A stretch of DNA of 64,000 nucleotides, taken from contig OY282383.1 in assembly GCA_958295855.1 (NCBI GenBank), forward strand, positions 1,964,481-2,028,480. The letters run 5' to 3'. This document shows positions 15,343-26,697 of this stretch, piece by piece. The DNA is from an uncultured Poribacteria bacterium (GTDB lineage: Bacteria > Poribacteria > WGA-4E > WGA-3G). Numbering within the stretch: the stretch's first letter is position 1; each line of letters opens with the position of its first letter. The position numbers were made by a program, and so were the translations under genes. The notes beneath the pieces were generated by a model. That model worked only from the letters and a program-made list of their open reading frames with translations. It had not been told where the DNA came from and did not search any database.

Positions 15343-15393
15343 TTAACGTGAGTTCAATTCCATATCCGGAGGGATACCGAGGCCAGCGCATAT

Positions 15394-17037
15394 ATGCCAA
15401 CACTCAATTGGATCGGCAAAGAAGCAGTTATCAACCATCACGATGAGGTGCCAATACACACGCTCACCCACGACAGCGACAGATCTCTCGGCACTGAGAA
15501 CGAACCCCTCGGCACTGGCAATCTCCTCATTGAAGGTGATAACCTCATCGCGCTCAAAGCACTCCTCCCCTACTACACCGGTAAAGTCAAATGCATCTTC
15601 ATCGATCCGCCCTATAATACAGGCAACGAAAACTGGGTTTACAACGACAACGTCAATAATCCAACCATCCAGAAATGGCTCGGAAAAACGGTAGGGGCCC
15701 TCGCCGCAGATCTCTCCCGACACGATAAGTGGCTCTGCATGATGTTCCCACGCCTCTGTCTCCTCCATCAACTCCTCCGAGACGATGGTGCAATCTTCAT
15801 CACTATTGACGATAATGAGGTTCATCACCTCCGCCTCCTTATGGACGAAATCTTCGGAGAAGAAAACTTTGTCGCTAACATTGCATGGGAAAAACGCTAT
15901 AGCCGCAATAATGATGCGAAACTTTTTTATTCTAAAAAGGATGCGGTGCTCGTTTTCAGAAAGAGCAAAGCCCTCGAAATGCTACGGGAGATGCGAACCG
16001 ATGAGGCGAACTCGCTATATAAGAACCCGGATAATGATCCACGCGGTCCATGGATGACTACTCCTTATGCTAGAAAAAGTAGCAAAAAGCATGATAATCT
16101 GGTTTATCCAATCACCAATCCAAATACAGGTGAGACTGTGATTCATCCAGACTATGCATGGAGATGCACGAAAGAACAGCACGAAATTGACGTGAAGGAA
16201 AACAGGCTTTGGTGGGGCAAAAATGGTAGAGCGAAATACCCTAGACTGAAACGCTTTCTTTCAGAAGTCTCTGGCGGAATGGTCCCTATAGATATATGGT
16301 TTCATAAAGAAAGTGGTACCTCAGATGAAGGGACAAAAGAGGTCAAACAGATATTTAACACCGAGAATACCGTATTTGACTACCCGAAACCTACGCGGCT
16401 TATCCGGCGGATTATCAACCTTGTCACAACGCCCGATGGAAATGATATTGTGCTAGACTCCTTTGCTGGCAGCGGCACGACCGGTCACGCTGTCCTTGCC
16501 CAAAACCGTGAAGATAGGGGCAATCGCCAATTCATTTTAGTGGAATTGGAGCCGAAGATAGCCCGCAAAATTACAGTGACACGTCTCAAGCGCGTCAGTG
16601 AGGGCTACACCTTTGAAAACAACGGTAAACAACAGCACGAGTTCGGCACTGGTGGTACATTCTCTTATTACCACGTCAGTGACACCTTCTTGGAAAAATC
16701 GGAAATTCCCTTTCATGAGATGGCGCAGTACCTCTTTTTCAAGGAGACAGGTGTCCCGATGGCGACAGACACCGCGCTTGCCCTTGTAGAATCGGATAGA
16801 CCTTCGTATGCTTCTTGCACTACCCGTGAAAAACGCCACCGCGCCTTTTTAGGGAGTGCAGACGGTGTGGGTGTCTATCTGCTCAACAACGACGATGTCC
16901 TCACCGAGGAGCTCATAAGCCGCTTACCGCGCCATGATGGCAGAAAGATAATCCATTGTGGTGGCACCCAACTCACCGATGCTTTTTTAAAGCAGTTGGG
17001 CATAACCTTTCGCCAAATGCCGTATAACCTCGTATAG
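15394..17037 (+). CDS. Type III Mod-like adenine DNA methyltransferase, copy 1
   Basis: Mod subunits methylate adenine N6 at asymmetric sites and guide the Res subunit. The 547-residue protein has motif IV DPPYNTG at residues 71-77 and motif I DSFAGSGTTGHAV from residue 355, the circularly permuted beta-class order of type III Mods. Between them lies the target recognition region. Residues 1-130 and from about 350 to the end are almost identical to copy 2 at 17218, but about 220 central residues differ almost completely. So the two copies likely recognise different DNA sequences. The last 190 residues, rich in shared text, are probably the dimerisation and Res contact part. A small upstream element GGAGGGATACCGAGG, seen in both copies, includes a Shine-Dalgarno-like site. 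Confidence 0.88.
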   Translation: MPTLNWIGKEAVINHHDEVPIHTLTHDSDRSLGTENEPLGTGNLLIEGDNLIALKALLPYYTGKVKCIFIDPPYNTGNENWVYNDNVNNPTIQKWLGKTVGALAADLSRHDKWLCMMFPRLCLLHQLLRDDGAIFITIDDNEVHHLRLLMDEIFGEENFVANIAWEKRYSRNNDAKLFYSKKDAVLVFRKSKALEMLREMRTDEANSLYKNPDNDPRGPWMTTPYARKSSKKHDNLVYPITNPNTGETVIHPDYAWRCTKEQHEIDVKENRLWWGKNGRAKYPRLKRFLSEVSGGMVPIDIWFHKESGTSDEGTKEVKQIFNTENTVFDYPKPTRLIRRIINLVTTPDGNDIVLDSFAGSGTTGHAVLAQNREDRGNRQFILVELEPKIARKITVTRLKRVSEGYTFENNGKQQHEFGTGGTFSYYHVSDTFLEKSEIPFHEMAQYLFFKETGVPMATDTALALVESDRPSYASCTTREKRHRAFLGSADGVGVYLLNNDDVLTEELISRLPRHDGRKIIHCGGTQLTDAFLKQLGITFRQMPYNLV

Positions 17038-17061
17038 CAGCGTACGGTAGTAAGCACACGC

Positions 17062-17078
17062 CGTGTGCTGTCAAGTAT
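17062..17078 (+). terminator. Hairpin after Mod copy 1
   Basis: AGCACAC and GTGTGCT form a perfect 7-bp stem with a 3-nt loop about 25 nt after the stop codon. A run of seven T follows later. The same structure, slightly degenerate, occurs after copy 2. Terminator or attenuator is likely. Confidence 0.45.
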
Positions 17079-17093
17079 GCAGGTACAATTTTT

Positions 17094-17122
17094 TTGACAA
17101 ATTTGGTTGGATGTTTTATAAT
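17094..17122 (+). promoter_or_regulatory. Consensus sigma-70 promoter of the second Mod gene
   Basis: TTGACA (17094-17099), 17 nt, TATAAT (17117-17122): both boxes match consensus. It lies in sequence duplicated after copy 2 as well (18912-18940). Confidence 0.8.
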
Positions 17123-17217
17123 ATCGTAGAATTTATTCCTCGTCAAAGGAGTAGCGGATATCCAGGCTTATAGAATTTCTATCCCACATCCGGAAGGATA
17201 TCGAGGGCACCGCATAC

Positions 17218-18855
17218 ATGCCAACACTTAATTGGATCGGCAAAGAAGCAGTTATTAACCATCACGATGAGGTGCCAATACACACGCTCACCCACGACAG
17301 CGACAGATCTCTCGGTGCTGAGAACGAACCTCTCGGCACTGGCAATCTCCTCATTGAAGGTGATAACCTCATCGCGCTCAAAGCACTCCTCCCCTACTAC
17401 ACCGGTAAAGTCAAATGCATTTTCATCGATCCACCCTATAATACAGGCAACGAAAACTGGGTTTACAACGACAACGTCAACAATCCAACCATCCAGAAAT
17501 GGCTCGGAAAAACGGTAGGGGCCCTCGCTGCAGATCTCTCCCGGCACGATAAGTGGCTCTGCATGATGTTCCCACGCCTCTGTCTCCTCCATCAACTCCT
17601 CCGAGACGATGGAGTCATTTTCGTTACACTTGACGATAACGAACAACCGAACCTGCGTTTACTGATGAACGAGATTTTCGGTGAGACAAATTTTGTTGCC
17701 AATCTCATCTGGAGAAAAAAGGCGGGTGGCGGACAAGACTCTGAATACTATGCCAGAGAGCATGAATACATCCTCTGCTACCGGAAAAGTGATGCCTATA
17801 CTATGAAGTTCAGGACCTCAGAGAGAACTCAAACTGAATTTCCTAAAGTCAAGAATGGGCGAAAATGTAAATTCGTGAAACTCGAAAAATGGGGATCCAA
17901 CGCATATAGGGAAGACAGACCCACAATGTTTTATCCAATTGAAGATCCGGATGGAAACCCCTTCTTTCCGCAAGCTCCAGATGGAAACGATGGAAATTGG
18001 AGAACTCGCCCTACAGCTTTGGATCAAGACCATATTCATTGGATAAAAAGAAGAGGGCGCTGGACACCCTACGAAGTTATCTATTTTGACGAGAAACAAG
18101 ACAAAGCGAAAGTTCTTAAAGAGCGCAGCATCTATTACGATATTGCAACAACGACAGATGCTACAAACGAGCAAAAATCCATTTTTGGCAAAAAGGTTTT
18201 TGACAATAGCAAACCCCTTGAGCTCATAAAGCGGTTGATTCTATTGTCTACCGAACCTGATTCAATTGTGCTAGACTCCTTTGCTGGCAGCGGCACGACC
18301 GGCCACGCTGTCCTTGCCCAAAACCGTGAAGATAGGGGCAATCGCCAATTCATTTTAGTGGAATTGGAGCCGAAGATAGCCCGTGAAATTACAGTGACAC
18401 GTCTCAAGCGCGTCAGTGAGGGTTACACCTTTGAGAACAACGGTAAACAACAACACGAGTTCGGCACTGGTGGCACCTTCTCCTATTACCACGTCAGTGA
18501 CACCTTCTTGGAAAAATCGGAAATTCCCTTTCATGAGATGGCGCAGTACCTCTTTTTCAAGGAGACAGGTGTCCCGATGGCGACAGACACCGCGCTTGCC
18601 CTTGTAGAATCGGATAGACCTTCGTATGCCTCTTGCACTACCCGTGAAAAACGCCACCGCGCCTTTTTAGGGAGCGCGGACGGTGTGGGTGTCTATCTGC
18701 TCAACAACGACGATGTCCTCACTGAGGAGCTCATAAATCGCTTACCGCGCCATGATGGCAGAAAGATAATCCATTGTGGTGGCACCCAACTCACCGATGC
18801 TTTTTTAAAGCAGTTGGGCATAACCTTTCGCCAAATGCCGTATAACCTCGTATAG
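17218..18855 (+). CDS. Type III Mod-like adenine DNA methyltransferase, copy 2
   Basis: The 545-residue protein is a tandem paralog of the 15394 gene. Motif IV DPPYNTG and motif I DSFAGSGTTGHAV are the same. The N-terminal region to about residue 130 and the C-terminal 195 residues are nearly identical at DNA level, with only scattered silent or single changes. The centre (starting near GVIFVTLDDNEQ, ending before the DSFAGSG motif) is unrelated except for short structural matches such as NFVAN. This is what one expects after exchange of the target-recognition region. The sequence upstream and about 130 bp downstream is also duplicated. Two Mods with one Res could give two specificities to one restriction system. 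Confidence 0.88.
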   Translation: MPTLNWIGKEAVINHHDEVPIHTLTHDSDRSLGAENEPLGTGNLLIEGDNLIALKALLPYYTGKVKCIFIDPPYNTGNENWVYNDNVNNPTIQKWLGKTVGALAADLSRHDKWLCMMFPRLCLLHQLLRDDGVIFVTLDDNEQPNLRLLMNEIFGETNFVANLIWRKKAGGGQDSEYYAREHEYILCYRKSDAYTMKFRTSERTQTEFPKVKNGRKCKFVKLEKWGSNAYREDRPTMFYPIEDPDGNPFFPQAPDGNDGNWRTRPTALDQDHIHWIKRRGRWTPYEVIYFDEKQDKAKVLKERSIYYDIATTTDATNEQKSIFGKKVFDNSKPLELIKRLILLSTEPDSIVLDSFAGSGTTGHAVLAQNREDRGNRQFILVELEPKIAREITVTRLKRVSEGYTFENNGKQQHEFGTGGTFSYYHVSDTFLEKSEIPFHEMAQYLFFKETGVPMATDTALALVESDRPSYASCTTREKRHRAFLGSADGVGVYLLNNDDVLTEELINRLPRHDGRKIIHCGGTQLTDAFLKQLGITFRQMPYNLV

Positions 18856-18911: not shown

Positions 18912-18940
18912 TTGACAAATTTGGTTAGATGTCTTATAAT
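18912..18940 (+). promoter_or_regulatory. Consensus sigma-70 promoter of the AAA ATPase gene
   Basis: TTGACA (18912-18917), 17 nt, TATAAT (18935-18940). It is the copy of the promoter at 17094, carried along with the duplicated 3' flank of the Mod gene, and now precedes the ATPase gene. Confidence 0.75.
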
Positions 18941-19150: not shown

Positions 19151-20755
19151 ATGCTTCACGCACTGGAATTAGAGAATTTCAAAGCCTTCGGGGAACGCGC
19201 GCGTATTCCGTTTGCGCCGATAACGCTCATTTTCGGCGAAAACAGCGCGGGAAAGAGCACAATCCTGCAAGCACTTAATTTGCTCAAGCAGACACGGGAA
19301 AGCCGGGAGACTGGGGTTTTGCTGCTGCCGCGAGTTGAGAATGGCATTGTCGATCTTGGCAGCTTTCAGGATATGCTTTTCGACCATGATTTGGAACGGA
19401 CGCTTTCGATTCGTGTTGAAACTACAGTAGGTAGAAGATACCGGTTTCGACCATCATTCAGCGGAGACAAAATAGCTATTGAACTTCGTTTCAAAAGACC
19501 CTCCCTTGAGGAAGAAGTCCTTTTAGATGAAATTGGTATTTACAATGGGAAATCTGCTAAGTGTATTGCCAAATTTCAGCCATTGGATCGAACTGAAATA
19601 TCAAGGGAATTTCGGGGGCGGTTAGGCTTTTTCCGTGATTCGCGTGGGTTGCCAGTTTCAATTTCAAAATTAGGGGCGGCAAAGTGCGTTTGGTTAACAG
19701 AGGAGCCAGAGCATTGGAAGCTGGAGTTTGAGTGGCGTTTGAGGAATAACGAGGAGGAACTTCGCGAACTCAAGGAAATATTAACTGAATTTGAGCATGC
19801 TAACGAAGCTCGCCAGGAAGACAATAATAGGCTTAGGGAAGGGTTGAAATCCTTAAACGACGAGATTAAATTCTTATCATCGGATTTTGATTTGAAAACC
19901 TACATTTCCAGGAGGCACCAGGAAAAGATGAACACGGTCCTAGGGATGCAGGGTTTTCTGCCAGTTGGAGCCATGCATGGTGAAAGAAGTTCTTGGAGAG
20001 GAGTACGCCGCTCATTATTACGCCGGCGACCTGATGATGCGGTGTTTGATGTCGCTCGACTCGCTACCATAGCAGGCTATGCTTTGGAGCAAACTTTGGA
20101 ATCTCTTTTCCCAATGAGCCCTTTTCGGAGACCTCCGGAAAGATGGTACATCTTTAGGGGTACCAGCCCCCAAAATGTGGGATATCGCGGAGATTTGCTT
20201 CCAGATTTACTCTTCCGTCGTCCTGAGCTAGTGCAAGACACAAACGAATGGCTCAAACGACTTGACATCGGCTACGAGCTTGAGGTAAAACCGGTGGGGA
20301 CTGAGGCACGCGATCTATTTGAGGTCAGGCTCATAGATACCCGTCGAAAAGAACGCGTAAGTGTAGCACTGCCAGATGTCGGTTTCGGTATTAGTCAACT
20401 CCTCCCCTTCGTTGTTCAGAGTTTGGTTTCAGAGGAACAAATTATTTCTATTGAGCAACCTGAAGTTCACGTGCATCCGAGATTGCAAGCAGATCTCGGT
20501 GACCTGTTAGCGGAAGCCATTAAAAAACCACGCCGGAGCCAATTCATCGTTGAAACCCACAGTGAGCATCTGATTTTACGTCTGCAACGCCTCGTCTATA
20601 AAAATCGCATTAAGCCAGAAGATGTCTCGGTTATCTACGTCAGTCGAGGCCCTGAAGGGGCGGAGGCCCAACGTTTACATCTTGATGAGGAAGGCGATTT
20701 TATTGATGAATGGCCCAACGGGTTTTTCCTGGAACGTCTCCGGGAATTGAGATAA
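19151..20755 (+). CDS. AAA/OLD-like ATPase with DUF3696 C-terminus
   Basis: The 534-residue protein starts at 19151 (MLHALELENFKAFG), with AGGAG 7 nt upstream; a longer frame from 19019 includes the leader. Walker A is GENSAGKST at residues 29-37. Signature-like VGFGISQLLP and Walker B ISIEQPEVHVHPRL (E435) follow, then the H-loop ETHSEHLILRL. The C-terminus GDFIDEWPNGFFLERLREL is the DUF3696 pattern. This is an ABC/SMC-like ATPase of the type common in phage defence. A charged helical region near 200-260 may form a coiled coil. The next gene starts 17 nt after the stop, so the two are an operon. Confidence 0.85.
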   Translation: MLHALELENFKAFGERARIPFAPITLIFGENSAGKSTILQALNLLKQTRESRETGVLLLPRVENGIVDLGSFQDMLFDHDLERTLSIRVETTVGRRYRFRPSFSGDKIAIELRFKRPSLEEEVLLDEIGIYNGKSAKCIAKFQPLDRTEISREFRGRLGFFRDSRGLPVSISKLGAAKCVWLTEEPEHWKLEFEWRLRNNEEELRELKEILTEFEHANEARQEDNNRLREGLKSLNDEIKFLSSDFDLKTYISRRHQEKMNTVLGMQGFLPVGAMHGERSSWRGVRRSLLRRRPDDAVFDVARLATIAGYALEQTLESLFPMSPFRRPPERWYIFRGTSPQNVGYRGDLLPDLLFRRPELVQDTNEWLKRLDIGYELEVKPVGTEARDLFEVRLIDTRRKERVSVALPDVGFGISQLLPFVVQSLVSEEQIISIEQPEVHVHPRLQADLGDLLAEAIKKPRRSQFIVETHSEHLILRLQRLVYKNRIKPEDVSVIYVSRGPEGAEAQRLHLDEEGDFIDEWPNGFFLERLRELR

Positions 20756-20772
20756 CAGAAGGAGCTAAGTCA

Positions 20773-21738
20773 ATGCTAGTCAGTGCAGTGCTTGATCCTG
20801 CTGCGTTTGATTCAGATTATTTTGATGCACTTTATACGATTCAGGCGGTAGATTTCTTAAAGGGTATCCAGAGAAACGGACTACTAATTGTTGATTCGGA
20901 AAATAGACTGCGAGATGCCCTCGTTAAACAAATTAAATCCCTTCCAATCAAGCCTCAGCAGCGATTGCGATCTTTGATTGAAGAACTCGTCCTGAAAAAG
21001 AGATCCAAGCGAGTCATTGCGTGTTTTGTCTCCCTAAATGATACATCATCGGTGAGTCTTTTGGACTTAGCATATCACTTGAAAACGGGTACCAAAGCCG
21101 ATGCCTTAATTGTTGGAAAGAAAAGCCTGGAAACACTAAAATCGGACCGAAGGTTTAGTGAGTGCATGGTTCCATTATCAGAATACCGCGATAGCAATTT
21201 TGAGAAAGACCGCCAGCAGTATGAGAACCAATTTGGCCCCATAGACACGCTGCCTAAATCGGAAGTGGAAGACATCATCATCCGTTCAGTCCGTTTCTCG
21301 AAATGGCTGCGGTTTTATGACCCATACATTGGGAGAAGAAAAAATACACCTGATTTCCAAAAAGGTATTAAATATATTCTATCGCTTTGGAATCAACCCG
21401 GTTCTTTTGCATCTCAGCAGGGCGTTAGAAGTGTGGAGATATTTACGTGTAGTCATCGAGATGTCCAGACTCACGTTCAACACCAAAGAATCACTCAAAA
21501 GCTCATAGAACCGCTAACGCGCCGATTTCCTCTTCCTATACATTTCTCGATAAAGGACGATGCTGATGGTATCTTTCATGCGAGGTATTTGGAAACGCAA
21601 CACGCGATTATCCGAGTCGATCGTGGTTTTGACCTCTTCAAGCGAAACGGCGAGTTTCGGCGGAACTTCTTTACGCTACATAAGGCGGAAAGTTCGCACT
21701 TGAGAGAGTGTCGCGATTTACCGAACGCAGCCCTTTGA
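20773..21738 (+). CDS. Phospholipase-D-like (MIT-C type) protein paired with the ATPase
   Basis: The 321-residue protein starts at 20773 with AAGGAG 8 nt upstream, 17 nt after the ATPase. The C-terminal half has RFYDPYIGRRKNTPDFQKGI, then VEIFTCSHRDV, and finally FHARYLETQHAII plus RVDRGFDLF. This is the pattern of one PLD/MIT-C-like unit: D-P-Y-I-x-N-F, an F-T strand, and a final (H-x-R)-x-L-x-T with a following G-x-D. The H-x-K of true PLD nucleases is H-x-R here, so activity is uncertain. The N-terminal half is helical with no recognised domain. With the ATPase it probably forms a two-gene defence module; that is inference. Confidence 0.65.
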   Translation: MLVSAVLDPAAFDSDYFDALYTIQAVDFLKGIQRNGLLIVDSENRLRDALVKQIKSLPIKPQQRLRSLIEELVLKKRSKRVIACFVSLNDTSSVSLLDLAYHLKTGTKADALIVGKKSLETLKSDRRFSECMVPLSEYRDSNFEKDRQQYENQFGPIDTLPKSEVEDIIIRSVRFSKWLRFYDPYIGRRKNTPDFQKGIKYILSLWNQPGSFASQQGVRSVEIFTCSHRDVQTHVQHQRITQKLIEPLTRRFPLPIHFSIKDDADGIFHARYLETQHAIIRVDRGFDLFKRNGEFRRNFFTLHKAESSHLRECRDLPNAAL

Positions 21739-21840: not shown

Positions 21841-22938
21841 ATGACGACAAAGGCTCAATTCAATCAAAATATCCCGTGGAACCACATTCCGGAACTTCCG
21901 CCTAGAGTGGACATTGATTCGCGCGATATACTTAGAGCGTGCATCTCGGCGATGACTGAGCTTGCTAGGGCAAACGCCTTGGTGAAGATGCTGCCAAACG
22001 AAGGAGTTCTGGTTGACACCTTACCACTTCAGGAGGCACGCATGAGTTCGGAAATCGAAAATATCGTCACCACAAACGATGAACTGTATCGAGCTATGAC
22101 CTCTGAAAACCACCAAATTTCCCCGAGTACCAAAGAAGTGCTGCGCTACCGCGAGGCATTATGGACAGGTGTGAGTAGTCTGCGCGCCCGCCCCACTCTG
22201 AACATGTCACTCTTTGAGCAGATTTGTTCGCGTATTCTTGATATGGAGATGAGTGTTCGGGATGACGGGGTCGTGATTGTAAACAAGGCCACACAGCAGG
22301 TTATCTACACGCCTCCCATCGGATACAAGAAGATCATAAAGTTGTTAACCAACCTTGAGCACTTCATCAACGACAACAACAATGGATTCCAACCACTTGT
22401 CAAAATGGCCGTGATGCACTACCAGTTTGAAGCGATACACCCCTTCGCGGATGGCAATGGGCGGACGGGCCGCATACTCAACATTCTCTATCTTATACAT
22501 CAAGGGCTGCTTGATGTCCCGATACTTTACCTCAGTCGTTTCTTTATCCAGAATAGGTCTGACTATTACCGTTACCTGCGTGAAGTTACAGAAGATGGAA
22601 AATGGCAGCAGTGGATACTCTACGTGTTAGAGGCAGTGGAACAGACATCACGAGACACTGCACGCACGATAGAGGCAATCAATACCCTTATTGACAACCT
22701 AATTACGCGAGCACAAGGCAAAACGAAAGCCGTTGAGCGCGAAGGGTTTGTAGAGCTACTGTTCAAGTGGCCTTACTGTAAGATTAATATTGTTGAGAGA
22801 GAACTGAAGTGTAGTCGCGTTACAGCCACAAAATACCTGAACGAAATAGCAGATCTTGGGTTGCTTGAGCGCGTGAAGATCGGACGAGAATCCTATTACA
22901 TCAACAGGAATCTTATGGAATTGCTCTCAAACGTGTAG
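21841..22938 (+). CDS. Fic-domain AMPylase with C-terminal winged-helix domain
   Basis: Fic proteins transfer AMP or similar groups to hydroxyl side chains. The 365-residue protein has the Fic motif HPFADGNGRTGR from residue 200, complete with the catalytic His. Residues 69-74 (SSEIEN) fit the inhibitory helix [S/T]xxxE[G/N], so this is a class II, self-inhibited Fic protein. The N-terminal domain is the Fic_N type. Residues 300-365 form a winged-helix domain (IVERELKCSRVTATKYLNEI), probably DNA-binding. The operator before the gene is likely its own target. Such genes are common in defence islands and are thought to regulate or stop cell growth. Confidence 0.88.
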   Translation: MTTKAQFNQNIPWNHIPELPPRVDIDSRDILRACISAMTELARANALVKMLPNEGVLVDTLPLQEARMSSEIENIVTTNDELYRAMTSENHQISPSTKEVLRYREALWTGVSSLRARPTLNMSLFEQICSRILDMEMSVRDDGVVIVNKATQQVIYTPPIGYKKIIKLLTNLEHFINDNNNGFQPLVKMAVMHYQFEAIHPFADGNGRTGRILNILYLIHQGLLDVPILYLSRFFIQNRSDYYRYLREVTEDGKWQQWILYVLEAVEQTSRDTARTIEAINTLIDNLITRAQGKTKAVEREGFVELLFKWPYCKINIVERELKCSRVTATKYLNEIADLGLLERVKIGRESYYINRNLMELLSNV

Positions 22939-23306
22939 ACGCAAACCCTGATCCGCGAGTGTTGTAACCTTGTTGGGAATAAATGTTTATAGGACACCAC
23001 GTGTGCAAACCTATAAACCCTGTCAGGGGGAAATATTTATAGAGTAGAAGCACAAACACTCGCATAGCGAATAACAATTGAACGTCCCGGTGCATCGGCG
23101 CAATTTTTGTTGCGCAGCCGATTTCTGTATGGTATCATAAATTAAGTGAGAAGAGGGCTTATCCAAGTCTTAATATGTATAGAAATTATACATATTCACC
23201 CTGATATGTATAGAAATTGCCAAAAACTATACATATCCAATTGTTGAATATCCCGGTGCATCGGCGCGATTTTTGTTGCTAACCAGAATTCTAGAAGGTG
23301 AACGTA
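22939..23306. other. Intergenic region with duplicated operator and repeat
   Basis: 368 bases without a gene. The first part has TTTATAG segments (22985, 23036) that are partial inverted repeats. The sequence CCCGGTGCATCGGCGC followed by a TTTTTGTTG stretch occurs twice, near 23086 and 23252. The operator described at 21754 is repeated at 23173-23237. So this region was probably built by duplication of the Fic gene upstream sequence. Confidence 0.6.
23173..23237. promoter_or_regulatory. Double-palindrome operator upstream of the toxin-antitoxin pair
   Basis: ATATGTATA/TATACATAT (23173-23195) and GATATGTATAG/CTATACATATC (23203-23237). Both palindromes and the sequence between are nearly identical to the Fic operator at 21754-21818, with the same order and spacing. 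A shared repressor would control both units. Confidence 0.7.
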
Positions 23307-24005
23307 ATGACACCCACTATTACAGACGACATCACCTCCCAACAGTTATGCGATTGGCTTGCGCCAATTGTAGATAGTGAGATATTTGCATCACGTGAAA
23401 AACTTATCGCGCTTCTTGCAAAGCATAGCCCCCACGAGGCCCTGGAACAAGAGTTCCGTGAGTTCTTCAACGGCTACTACGCCCTTGCCTTAGAACTTGA
23501 AGCGTACGAAACATCTGTCCTTACGCTCATAGAGGCATCCGACGCGTTTGCACACCTGAAACACTGTGTCTCTATAGTTGAAGCCAAGCGGAAGAGCTCG
23601 CCTTTGGGACGCGAAGTACGGCGGATGGGAATGTCCATACACCGAGATGCTGTGCCATCGATAAAGGTAACAGCACTATCCCCTGATGAATTCCGGGCGT
23701 TGATGCGGACACTTGGAGATTGGCGACTTTTTGCATTGCGGGAACGTCTCGTTGCGTTAATGGAAATGGAACGTTCCGTTGAGATAGTGCCGCGGCTTCG
23801 CGCCGAGTTCTACGAGTTTTTTGTCTCCTATTTGGAACTGGAACTGTTCCTTGAGAATTATGATTACGACCCGGACGAAGGGCTGGCATTGCGTCCAGAA
23901 TTCATTGAAGAACTAGAACGTGAAGATGAATATATCAAGTCTGGTGGCAAAATGTTTACGCTTGAGGAGGTCGCCGAAGAGTTAGGGGTCAAGTTGAATG
24001 TATGA
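23307..24005 (+). CDS. Antitoxin-like protein with internal repeat, partner of RelE-type toxin
   Basis: The ATG at 23307 is preceded by AAGGTG at 6 nt; a GTG at 23298 is also in frame. The 232-residue protein has two similar 60-70-residue blocks, REKLIALLAKHSPHEALEQE with FREFFNGYY, and RERLVALMEMERSVEIVPRL with RAEFYEFFVSY, so it contains an internal duplication. The C-terminal part, EDEYIKSGGKMFTLEEVAEE, is acidic and similar to the tail of many antitoxins that bind RelE/ParE proteins. The next gene overlaps its end by 8 nt. No DNA-binding domain is evident, so repression of the operator may be done by another protein. Confidence 0.6.
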   Translation: MTPTITDDITSQQLCDWLAPIVDSEIFASREKLIALLAKHSPHEALEQEFREFFNGYYALALELEAYETSVLTLIEASDAFAHLKHCVSIVEAKRKSSPLGREVRRMGMSIHRDAVPSIKVTALSPDEFRALMRTLGDWRLFALRERLVALMEMERSVEIVPRLRAEFYEFFVSYLELELFLENYDYDPDEGLALRPEFIEELEREDEYIKSGGKMFTLEEVAEELGVKLNV

Positions 24006-24255
24006 ATTGATATTGACTCGAAACGCCGAGGGGGATTTGCGGCGTTTGGATGCCAAAATCCGAAAGCAAGTTATCAGAAAACTTCAACGGCTATGTGAAA
24101 ATTGTGACGAATACGCCCATAAGGCACTGAAGGGCAAATATAGTGGACAGTTCAAGTTACCTTCTGGAGACTATCGAGCGATTTATACTTACGATAAACA
24201 AACTGAGACAGTTACAGTCTCCCGAATTAGGCATCGTTCATCTGTCTATGAATGA
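23998..24255 (+). CDS. RelE/ParE-family toxin
   Basis: The 85-residue protein is RelE/ParE-like in length and pattern: YELILTRNAEGDLRRLDAKI at the start, the basic core LKGKYSGQFKLPSGDYRAIY and the C-terminal VTVSRIRHRSSVYE with the H-R-x-x-V-Y end. RelE-like toxins cut mRNA at the ribosome, ParE-like ones inhibit gyrase; which applies cannot be told. It overlaps the antitoxin gene by 8 nt (ATGTATGA), so it is translationally coupled to it. The order is antitoxin first. Confidence 0.82.
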   Translation: MYELILTRNAEGDLRRLDAKIRKQVIRKLQRLCENCDEYAHKALKGKYSGQFKLPSGDYRAIYTYDKQTETVTVSRIRHRSSVYE

Positions 24256-24294: not shown

Positions 24295-26697
24295 ATGCAC
24301 CTACCCCTCAAAGAATACCAAGAGCGCACCCTTGAAACGCTGACAGCCTACTACCAAAACTGCCTGCATTTCAAGAATGCCAACACCGCATTCTACGATT
24401 TCACCCAGAGGCCGTATGCCGACGTTGAATCCTTACCCGGCATGCCTTATGTCTGTCTCCGCCTCCCAACAGGTGGGGGCAAAACCTTCGTGGCGTGTCA
24501 CACTGTGGGCATCACGGCATCTGAACTCTTAAAAACCGAGAGCCCGCTCGTCCTTTGGCTTACGCCTTCAAATGCCATCCGAGATCAGACGCTCAATGCC
24601 CTTAAAAATCCAGACCATCCGTACAGAGATGCTTTTAAATCCGCAGGGCACAATGTGGAGATCCGCACTATCGGCGAGGCACTCTATCTCTCTCCGTATA
24701 TTCTCAACACGAAAACGACGATTATTGTCTCTACGATGCAAGCGTTCCGCGTTGAGGACACCGATGGACGCAAGGTCTACGAACCCTCAGGCGCGCTGAT
24801 GGGACATTTCACACATCTGCCCGACGAAACCCTTTCGGAGATGGAGCGTGATGAAAGCGGCAAGCCGATCTATTCCCTCGCGAATCTCTTATGCGTTAAA
24901 CGTCCCCTCGTCATCGTGGATGAAGCACACAACGCCCGAACCGCACTCTCTTTTGATACGCTTGCCCGGTTCAACCCCGCTGCAATCATTGAATTCACTG
25001 CCACCCCGGATACCGTCAAAAATCCTTCCAATGTCCTCTATACCGTCTCTGCCGCCGAGCTCCAAGCGGAAGACATGATCAAGATGCCGATTCAGTTGGA
25101 AACCACGCCAGCGTGGAAACAGCTGCTCACCGCCGCTATTGCACAGCGCAACACGCTTGAAATTGATGCACAGAAGGAACAGGAAGAGACAGGTGAATAC
25201 ATCCGTCCCATCATGCTCATTCAGGCGCAGCCAAGACGCAAAAGCCAAGAGACATTGACTGTCGAAGTCGTTGAGAAATGTCTGCTTGAAGAACACGAAA
25301 TTCCCGAAGAGCAGATCGCGCGTGCCACAGGCGAGGACAGAGGCCTTGACAATGTCGACCTTAACCACCCGGGGTGTCACATTCGTTATGTCATCACCGT
25401 GCAGGCGTTGCGAGAAGGATGGGATTGCCCGTTCGCCTACGTCCTCTGCTCGGTCGCCGAAATGAAATCCTCCACGGCTGTTGAACAGATATTGGGCAGA
25501 GTCATGCGACTCCCAAAGGCACAGCGAAAGAAACAGGAATCACTGAACAGGGCTTATGCTTTCGTTGCGTCCCGCAACTTCTACGATGCGGCATCCGCCT
25601 TGACCGATGGGCTCGTCCAAAACGGGTTTGAAAAGCAGGCAGCCGCTGAACTCATCCGCGCTACAGGCGACTGTCAACCCATTTTGTCACTCTTTGCAGG
25701 CATGACACCACCGAGCACCGAGCCTACACCCGCAGAACGCGGGGAAGTTTTTAAAGTACCGAAGTTAGCAGTGCAACGCGGGCAAACACACCTTGATTTT
25801 GAGGGAACGCGATTTCGAGAAACCCCATGGCGGCTGTCCGAATGCGATGCTGAACTCTCTGAAGAAGAATTTCCATCCGAATTTAACACGGGAGACCGGG
25901 GCGAAATCGGGCTTTCTCGCGAGGGACGATTAGAGATGCGATTCTTGGGGGAACTCCATCAACAGATGACTCTCCTCGCGCCGGATAAAAACTGGGATGC
26001 AGCACGGCTCGCCGATTGGCTGGACAGAACCATTAAACATCTGGACATCCTGCGCCGTGAGTCCCTCCCTTTCCTACAGCGATTAGTCAAACATCTGATT
26101 GAAGTGCGAGATATCCCAATAGAGATGCTCATCCGCAACAAGTACGCCCTCAAGGATGCTGCTGCGGCGAAGATTGATAGCCATCGCCAAACCGCGCACC
26201 GCGGTGCCTATCAAAACCTTCTCTTGCCCGAATGTGAAACGCCGGTTGTTGTATCACCGGAACACTGCTTCTCCTTCGACGCACACCGTTATCCCTACAA
26301 CACTCGTTATGCGGGTGCCTATCAATTCCAGAAACATTACTACCCACACGTCGGCACTCTGAAGGCAGATGGCGAAGAATTCCGATGCGCGCAGTTCATT
26401 GACACGTTGCCTGAAGTTAAATATTGGGTACGGAACCTTGAACGCCAACCGCTTTATTCCTTTTGGCTTCAAACCTTAACCGACAAGTTTTACCCTGATT
26501 TTGTCTGCCTCTTAACCGATGGACGCTATTTAGTGGTTGAGTACAAAGGCGAGCACCTCTGGTCTGCCGACGATGCGAAAGAAAAGCGCGACATCGGTGA
26601 ATTGTGGGAGGCGCGTAGCAAAGGGAAGTGCCTCTTCATCATGCCCAAAGGCACAGATTTTGAGGCAATCCGCGCCAAGATGGCCTCAAAATTCTGA
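24295..26697 (+). CDS. Type III restriction Res-like helicase-nuclease
   Basis: Res subunits translocate or scan DNA with ATP and cut it together with Mod. The 800-residue protein has the superfamily 2 Walker A PTGGGKT at residues 58-64, DEAH at 209-212, TATPD soon after, and a motif VI-like QILGRVMRLP. The C-terminal YPDFVCLLTDGRYLVVEYKG gives D735, E749 and K751, the PD-(D/E)XK nuclease. It comes 39 nt after the RelE-type toxin gene, so the toxin-antitoxin pair lies between it and the Mods at 15394 and 17218. The two Mods and this Res would make a full type III system, split by about 5.4 kb of other modules. Confidence 0.87.
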   Translation: MHLPLKEYQERTLETLTAYYQNCLHFKNANTAFYDFTQRPYADVESLPGMPYVCLRLPTGGGKTFVACHTVGITASELLKTESPLVLWLTPSNAIRDQTLNALKNPDHPYRDAFKSAGHNVEIRTIGEALYLSPYILNTKTTIIVSTMQAFRVEDTDGRKVYEPSGALMGHFTHLPDETLSEMERDESGKPIYSLANLLCVKRPLVIVDEAHNARTALSFDTLARFNPAAIIEFTATPDTVKNPSNVLYTVSAAELQAEDMIKMPIQLETTPAWKQLLTAAIAQRNTLEIDAQKEQEETGEYIRPIMLIQAQPRRKSQETLTVEVVEKCLLEEHEIPEEQIARATGEDRGLDNVDLNHPGCHIRYVITVQALREGWDCPFAYVLCSVAEMKSSTAVEQILGRVMRLPKAQRKKQESLNRAYAFVASRNFYDAASALTDGLVQNGFEKQAAAELIRATGDCQPILSLFAGMTPPSTEPTPAERGEVFKVPKLAVQRGQTHLDFEGTRFRETPWRLSECDAELSEEEFPSEFNTGDRGEIGLSREGRLEMRFLGELHQQMTLLAPDKNWDAARLADWLDRTIKHLDILRRESLPFLQRLVKHLIEVRDIPIEMLIRNKYALKDAAAAKIDSHRQTAHRGAYQNLLLPECETPVVVSPEHCFSFDAHRYPYNTRYAGAYQFQKHYYPHVGTLKADGEEFRCAQFIDTLPEVKYWVRNLERQPLYSFWLQTLTDKFYPDFVCLLTDGRYLVVEYKGEHLWSADDAKEKRDIGELWEARSKGKCLFIMPKGTDFEAIRAKMASKF

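What the first reader, a model, noticed from the sequence alone, without database searches (positions are those of the whole stretch)
19151..21738. DUF3696 ATPase paired with a PLD/MIT-C-like protein
Two genes 17 nt apart, each with a good ribosome site. The ATPase is of a type known from defence, while the second protein shows a D-P-Y-I...N-F strand and a final H-A-R-Y-L-x-T with G-F-D, like one half of a PLD-type nuclease or a MIT-C domain. The pair fits sensor-ATPase plus effector. I do not recognise it as a named system.
Basis: partly seen in the sequence, partly recalled or inferred. Interest (0 to 1): 0.72.

Follow-up and report, generated by a model that had tools for sequence, protein, structure and literature searches.

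The report
ATPase-effector pair with swappable toxin module
In the sponge-symbiont phylum Poribacteria, a two-gene module (a molecular-switch ATPase plus an effector protein) sits with its own promoter inside a DNA restriction-modification operon, and related copies replace the effector's output half with the antitoxin of a gyrase-poison-type toxin, which suggests a self-destruct relay whose output can be exchanged.

Summary
The two genes are real. They are adjacent in all 29 relatives examined, which all come from one Poribacteria family. The second protein has two domains. The C-terminal part (about residues 180-321) is confidently a PLD-fold, MIT_C-like domain (Foldseek best hits MITD1, E 1e-4, then the PLD-type restriction enzyme SauUSI). 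The catalytic HKD motif is not intact (HxR..E instead). The N-terminal ~180 residues are a domain of unknown fold. In five relatives the same N-domain is fused to the antitoxin of a ParE-type toxin instead of MIT_C, and an intact ParE follows each time. On the ATPase tree these fusions are scattered (at least four forced changes), while their N-domains form one clade, so the output gene is exchanged between ATPases. The ATPase has a hypervariable centre and invariant ATP-binding motifs. The pair lies between mod and res of a type III R-M operon in most copies, between those of a second R-M family in one, and alone in others, usually behind its own near-consensus promoter. The closest known kind is PADLOC candidate HEC-03, but no homology to HEC-03A was detectable. 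Best reading: an ATPase-gated abortive-infection module guarding a type III R-M system, with exchangeable outputs. Function is untested.

The parts
18912..18940 (+). sigma-70 consensus promoter TTGACA-17-TATAAT in front of the ATPase gene
   Evidence: 0 mismatches of 12; most of the 30 upstream regions have at most 1 mismatch, against 5 of 1000 shuffles of the window region; a second copy downstream of MOD1 at 17094-17122
19151..20755 (+). DUF3696 / AAA_15 ABC-type ATPase, 534 aa (proposed sensor-switch)
   Evidence: Pfam DUF3696, AAA_15, AAA_21; PADLOC HEC-03B E 2.4e-58
19235..19261 (+). Walker A GENSAGKS(T/S)
   Evidence: intact in 30 of 30 (T or S at the last position)
19448..20140 (+). hypervariable central region of the ATPase (residues 100-330), proposed specificity cassette
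   Evidence: aa divergence 0.55 against 0.16-0.27 elsewhere at equal 4-fold-site divergence (0.47-0.49)
20453..20569 (+). Walker B/signature EQPE(V/I)H and switch ETHSEH
   Evidence: EQPEVH in 29 and EQPEIH in 1 of 30; ETHSEH in 30 of 30
20760..20764 (+). ribosome site AGGAG of the effector gene
   Evidence: sequence
20773..21312 (+). effector N-domain (residues 1-180), the part shared by both effector types; invariant D8, G36, D41, K75, D110; fold unresolved
21313..21738 (+). effector C-domain, PLD-fold / MIT_C-like
   Evidence: AlphaFold block means mostly 72-92 from residue 161, one block 56; Foldseek MITD1 4a5z E 1.2e-4, prob 1.00; weak Pfam MIT_C in 12 of 16
21577..21594 (+). H269-x-R271-x-x-E274, invariant, at the sequence place of a PLD HxK motif (inferred)
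   Evidence: 23 of 23 C-domains
15394..17037 (+). type III methyltransferase MOD1 (host operon)
   Evidence: N6_N4_Mtase; PADLOC MTase_III E 5e-172
17218..18855 (+). type III methyltransferase MOD2, tandem copy with a different central region
23298..24005 (+). ParE antitoxin (ANTI), homologous to the C-terminal part of the fused effectors in L025-L028 and L073
23998..24255 (+). ParE toxin
   Evidence: Pfam ParE_toxin E 1.3e-12
24295..26697 (+). type III restriction subunit RES (host operon)
   Evidence: Pfam ResIII; PADLOC REase_III E 1.6e-144

Best explanation
The pair is one functional module. The ABC-type ATPase acts as sensor and switch. Its variable centre carries specificity, and its conserved core couples to the N-domain of the second protein. 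The second protein's N-domain is an adaptor, and its C-terminal module is the output: here a PLD-fold MIT_C-like domain, in relatives an antitoxin that holds a ParE toxin. Nested in a type III R-M operon but driven by its own promoter, the module most likely acts as a second line of defence. When a phage trigger appears, plausibly one linked to failure or inhibition of restriction, the ATPase changes state and releases or activates the output, stopping the cell (abortive infection). Shown: pairing, domain architecture, predicted fold of the C-domain, module exchange, nesting, promoter-like site, ATPase motifs. Inferred: adaptor role of the N-domain, specificity role of the variable centre, toxicity of the C-domain, trigger, abortive outcome.
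For: Adjacent in 29 of 29 relatives, and 30 of 59 family genomes carry it. Invariant ATPase motifs. N-domain shared by two kinds of output. Fused effectors scattered on the ATPase tree (5 changes, at least 4 forced) but one clade on the N-domain tree, 100/100. All 5 fusions are followed by an intact ParE, against 4 of 11 MIT_C operons that carry the antitoxin (Fisher p 0.034). The same antitoxin forms free-standing pairs with ParE elsewhere. Central ATPase region hypervariable and exchanged as a cassette (L017/L025: 4-fold divergence 0.10 in the centre, 0.44-0.50 around it). Nesting between mod and res of two different R-M families. The R-M res gene and the module co-occur (17 of 19 against 13 of 39, p 6e-5). 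Own promoter. The ATPase's best library relatives are defence models. Precedents for guardians of R-M: PrrC and PARIS (PMC12707154).
Against: No experiment exists. The N-domain model is low confidence and no profile links it to a known fold. The PLD HKD motif is incomplete, so the C-domain may not be catalytic. Stand-alone copies without R-M exist (L011, L012, L014, L019, L024, L028, L077), so the trigger need not be restriction failure. An intact mod-res operon without the module also exists (L103). The recombination signal at the ATPase 3' end could reflect mere physical linkage.
Confidence: 0.6

Rival explanations
1. The C-domain is an active PLD-type phosphodiesterase/nuclease (HxR variant, perhaps working as a dimer) that destroys phage or host nucleic acid directly, so the pair works like Septu or PARIS with a different nuclease.
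For: PLD fold, including matches to the SauUSI restriction enzyme and to PLD3 nucleases; invariant D183, K261, H269, R271, E274, N298.
Against: The canonical HxK(x)4D is absent: R replaces K and Q (or E) stands at the D position. The best structural match, MITD1, is a binding domain reported without catalysis (own knowledge).
Confidence: 0.3
2. The C-domain is non-catalytic and acts by binding membrane lipid or nucleic acid (as reported for MITD1), placing the ATPase complex or disrupting the membrane.
For: MITD1 is the top structural match and the HKD motif is not intact.
Against: The strictly invariant polar set is more than a general binding surface needs; replacement by a toxin-controlling antitoxin points to a toxic or output role.
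Confidence: 0.25
3. The ATPase-effector pair is an accessory subunit or regulator of the type III R-M enzyme (for example gating restriction) rather than a separate defence module.
For: Nested between mod and res in most copies and strongly co-occurring with res.
Against: Own promoter, stand-alone copies, nesting in a second R-M family, and a mod-res operon without it (L103).
Confidence: 0.12
4. The pair is a member of HEC-03 whose HEC-03A partner has diverged beyond recognition and gained a C-terminal domain.
For: HEC-03B is the best ATPase match (E 2.4e-58); true HEC-03A/B pairs in the same genomes have the same kind of arrangement and also lie near mod/res genes; by eye the N-domain's strand order and D8/D41 resemble HEC-03A.
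Against: No HEC-03A hit; profile-profile comparison not significant (P 0.27-0.49) and the global score is below the mean of shuffled controls; ATPase only half as well scored as true HEC-03B (196 against 403 bits).
Confidence: 0.35

Closest known systems
HEC-03 (PADLOC Hma-embedded candidate: HEC-03B DUF3696 ATPase + HEC-03A small partner)
   Same: DUF3696 ATPase directly followed by its partner; nested beside methylase/helicase genes; both kinds occur in the same genomes
   Different: Partner not recognisable as HEC-03A; it has an extra output domain, PLD/MIT_C or ParE antitoxin; the ATPase has a long hypervariable centre
PARIS (AriA/AriB)
   Same: ABC-type ATPase holding an effector; a guardian of R-M (PMC12707154); ATPase matches AriA E 3.4e-30
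   Different: No DUF4435/Toprim AriB; effector unrelated
EcoPrrI-PrrC
   Same: Output gene nested inside an R-M locus, triggered by R-M inhibition (PMC12707154)
   Different: PrrC is a single-chain anticodon nuclease in a type I locus; here two proteins in a type III locus
Menshen (NsnABC)
   Same: ATPase matches NsnB E 4e-54
   Different: No DUF262 partner and no OLD/Toprim nuclease beside it (PMC10952713)
ParE-type toxin-antitoxin modules
   Same: The exchanged output is a ParE antitoxin with ParE downstream; free-standing pairs occur
   Different: The antitoxin is fused to the adaptor of an ATPase-coupled effector
MIT_C domain (MITD1)
   Same: Predicted fold of the C-domain
   Different: No MIT domain; bacterial; Pfam scores below cut-off

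Membership tests
HEC-03 | HEC-03B-type DUF3696 ATPase | tested here: met
   E 2.4e-58, 196 bits, best PADLOC model, in two stretches; true copies in the same genome score 403 bits
HEC-03 | HEC-03A partner | tested here: not met
   No hit at E up to 1; hhalign against 30 HEC-03A-like proteins not significant
PARIS | AriB DUF4435/Toprim effector | tested here: not met
Menshen | NsnA (DUF262) and NsnC partners | tested here: not met
   Neighbours are MOD and effector; Pfam and PADLOC give no DUF262
MIT_C (PF16565) | Score over the gathering threshold | tested here: not met
   18.7 against 25 bits; 12 of 16 members match weakly
MIT_C / PLD fold | Structural similarity to MITD1 | tested here: met
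   Foldseek E 1.2e-4, prob 1.00, TM 0.51 over the target
PLD phosphodiesterases | HxK(x)4D catalytic motif | tested here: not met
   H-x-R-x-x-E invariant, Q or E at the D position
ParE antitoxin fusion | Antitoxin part homologous to a free antitoxin that pairs with ParE | tested here: met
   59-71% identity to the window's ANTI; free ANTI-ParE pairs; Unstab_antitox over cut-off in L092
R-M guardian system | Activation by R-M inhibition | not testable with these tools
   needs an experiment

The most novel reading that the evidence does not exclude
An ATPase-gated toxin-antitoxin: the adaptor domain of an ABC-ATPase effector has captured the antitoxin of a ParE module, so that phage sensing by the ATPase, rather than antitoxin turnover, releases the toxin. 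The same chassis carries a PLD-fold output in sister strains and exchanges the two by recombination, with a separately exchanged specificity cassette in the ATPase.
Probability: 0.4. Interest if true: 0.82.

Novelty: new variant of a known kind. Interest (0 to 1): 0.63.

Why it matters
It links two themes that are usually studied apart: ATPase-controlled abortive defence, and type II toxin-antitoxins. If the model holds, toxin-antitoxin pairs can be recruited as the output of a dedicated infection sensor, which bears on the open question of how such toxins are triggered by phage. Natural pairs of sister ATPases with different outputs (L017/L025, L026/L070, L011/L028) give ready controls. It also extends MIT_C-like domains to bacterial conflict systems and adds type III R-M to the loci that carry guardians.

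Tried and rejected
N-domain as a PIN domain or diverged HEC-03A: attractive by eye (strand order, D8, D41), but Pfam on 16 members, hhalign local and global with shuffles, and a fold search of a low-confidence model gave nothing; left open. Co-variation of the ATPase variable centre with MOD: none (Mantel r -0.12). ATPase sequence differing by effector type: no consistent difference except slightly lower divergence among fusion types at the last 60 residues. Relatives on plasmids, in phages or viral contigs: none. MIT_C family search in 60 relatives and controls rang nowhere, so it says nothing about absence. A weak BrxL match of the C-domain (E 6e-4 in 2 of 23) was not followed. Assembly artefact for the fusions: rejected, five genomes share the in-frame fusion.

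Full report
What is there. The two genes are at the stated coordinates. The ATPase starts at 19151 and ends at 20755; the second gene runs 20773-21738. The gap is 17 nt and both genes have an AGGAG ribosome site. The ATPase carries AAA_15, AAA_21 and DUF3696. The window belongs to a 5.5 Mb genome, and all named relatives are Candidatus Poribacteria (sponge association from own knowledge). A scan of 84,980 bacterial and archaeal species with two conserved peptides found 21 loci, all Poribacteria. Within the phylum, 30 of 59 genomes of one family carry the N-domain, one copy each, and none of 26 outside it do. Plasmids, phages and viral contigs gave none.

Pairing. In 29 relatives where both genes could be read the ATPase is immediately upstream, with a gap of -46 to +21 nt. 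Walker A, the EQPE(V/I)H signature and the ETHSEH switch are intact in 30 of 30.

Second protein. It has two domains. The AlphaFold model is confident over most of residues 161-321 (10-residue means 72-92, one block at 56) and poor before residue 150. Foldseek against the PDB puts MITD1 first (E 1.2e-4, probability 1.00), then the PLD domain of the restriction enzyme SauUSI, a PLD-like human protein, bacterial PLD and PLD3. Pfam MIT_C matches 12 of 16 members, all below the curated cut-off (best E 0.0016). Invariant in 23 of 23 C-domains are R174, K177, D183, K261, H269, R271, E274 and N298. The PLD catalytic HxK(x)4D is therefore altered to HxR..E, and catalysis cannot be assumed. The N-domain keeps D8, G36, D41, K75 and D110 in 30 of 30; its fold is unresolved.

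Exchange of the output. In five relatives (L025, L026, L027, L028, L073) residues 1-180 are kept but the C-domain is replaced, in frame, by a protein 59-71% identical to the window's own ORF 23298-24005. That ORF is the antitoxin of the ParE toxin at 23998-24255. It has free-standing copies next to or overlapping ParE elsewhere in these genomes (L088, L092, L098-L100 and others) and an Unstab_antitox tail over the Pfam cut-off in L092. Intact ParE follows all five fusions. In MIT_C operons that also hold the antitoxin, ParE is intact in 4 of 11 and decayed or gone in the rest (Fisher p 0.034; one locus that runs off its contig, L076, was left out). On the ATPase tree the fusions are scattered: 5 changes, at least 4 forced by well-supported branches, for example L017/L025, L026/L070 and L011/L028. 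On the N-domain tree they form one clade, 100/100. The fused gene thus arose once, as far as the unrooted tree shows, and has been passed between ATPases. The ATPase C-terminal segment co-varies with the N-domain (Mantel r 0.36, p 0.0002) while the centre varies independently of that C-terminal segment (r 0.05).

Variable ATPase centre. Residues 100-330 diverge at 0.55 per site against 0.16-0.27 elsewhere, although four-fold synonymous sites diverge equally (0.47-0.49). In the pair L017/L025 the centre has synonymous divergence of 0.10 but 0.44-0.50 on either side, which indicates a cassette exchanged by recombination. This resembles the recognition region of MOD, but no co-variation with MOD was found. 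A sensing role is inference.

Genomic setting. The usual order is MOD, ATPase, effector, (antitoxin, ParE), RES on one strand, in a chromosomal slot whose neighbours include tRNA synthetase and aminotransferase genes on one side and sulfatase and UbiA genes on the other. In L015 the pair lies between mod and res of a different, larger R-M family. A remnant of the effector C-domain lies between homologues of the same genes in the window's own genome at 3.69 Mb (L030). Stand-alone pairs exist (L011, L012, L014, L019, L024, L028, L077). Of 19 genomes with this RES, 17 carry the module; of 39 without, 13 do (p 6e-5). A near-perfect sigma-70 promoter precedes the ATPase in most copies, several stand-alone ones included. 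The module is therefore a unit of its own, repeatedly placed inside R-M operons. Such guilt by embedding is an established discovery principle (PMC12988326), and guardians of R-M such as PrrC and PARIS are described (PMC12707154).

Relation to known systems. The ATPase scores best to PADLOC HEC-03B, then PDC-M55A and NsnB. True HEC-03A/HEC-03B pairs exist in the same genomes, sometimes in tandem, beside yet another methylase and RES-like genes. The effector is not recognised as HEC-03A, and profile comparison does not show homology. It is therefore not filed as a HEC-03 member; it works in the same arrangement. PARIS and Menshen are excluded by their missing partners.

Mechanism and confidence. 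Pairing and architecture: about 0.97. C-domain PLD/MIT_C fold: about 0.85. A defence role: about 0.85. N-domain as ATPase adaptor: about 0.7. C-domain toxic when released: about 0.6; catalytic: about 0.3. Trigger tied to R-M failure: about 0.35. None of the functional steps has been tested.

Noticed in passing
15353-18855: Tandem type III mod genes nearly identical at both ends (88-100%) but only 19-40% identical over residues ~151-350, the likely recognition region: two specificities apparently sharing one res gene. The duplicated unit also carries the promoter (17094-17122 and 18912-18940).
   Followed up: partly
L107:221-4849, L108:124-5637, L109:950-7489: HEC-03A/HEC-03B pairs, sometimes in tandem, in Poribacteria beside a third kind of methylase (893 aa, in L107 and L109) and, in L108 and L109, a RES-like gene: nesting of DUF3696 ATPase modules in methylase/helicase operons is recurrent in this phylum.
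   Followed up: partly
21841-22938: SoFic-type Fic adenylyltransferase inserted between effector and antitoxin in the window; in L010 and L103 a homologue lies downstream of RES instead.
   Followed up: no
23298-24005: Large (235 aa) ParE antitoxin with an internal repeat (BLAST E 6e-8 between its halves), found in 48 of 58 family genomes, often in several copies; orphaned without ParE in many operons.
   Followed up: partly
L030:3504-16496 (window's genome, 3.69 Mb): Second, different mod/res pair with an effector C-domain remnant 81% identical over 53 residues to the window's and two copies of a YhgA-like transposase-related gene between them.
   Followed up: partly
L015 residues 245-330 of the effector: Weak match of the C-domain to the end (604-687 of 698) of one PADLOC BrxL model (E 0.0018), possibly a PLD/MIT_C-like tail on some BrxL proteins.
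   Followed up: no
upstream of the ATPase in L018, L020, L021, L025, L074, L075: TTGTGCATCTACACAA-like short inverted repeat just before the ribosome site of the ATPase gene, possibly an operator or hairpin.
   Followed up: no
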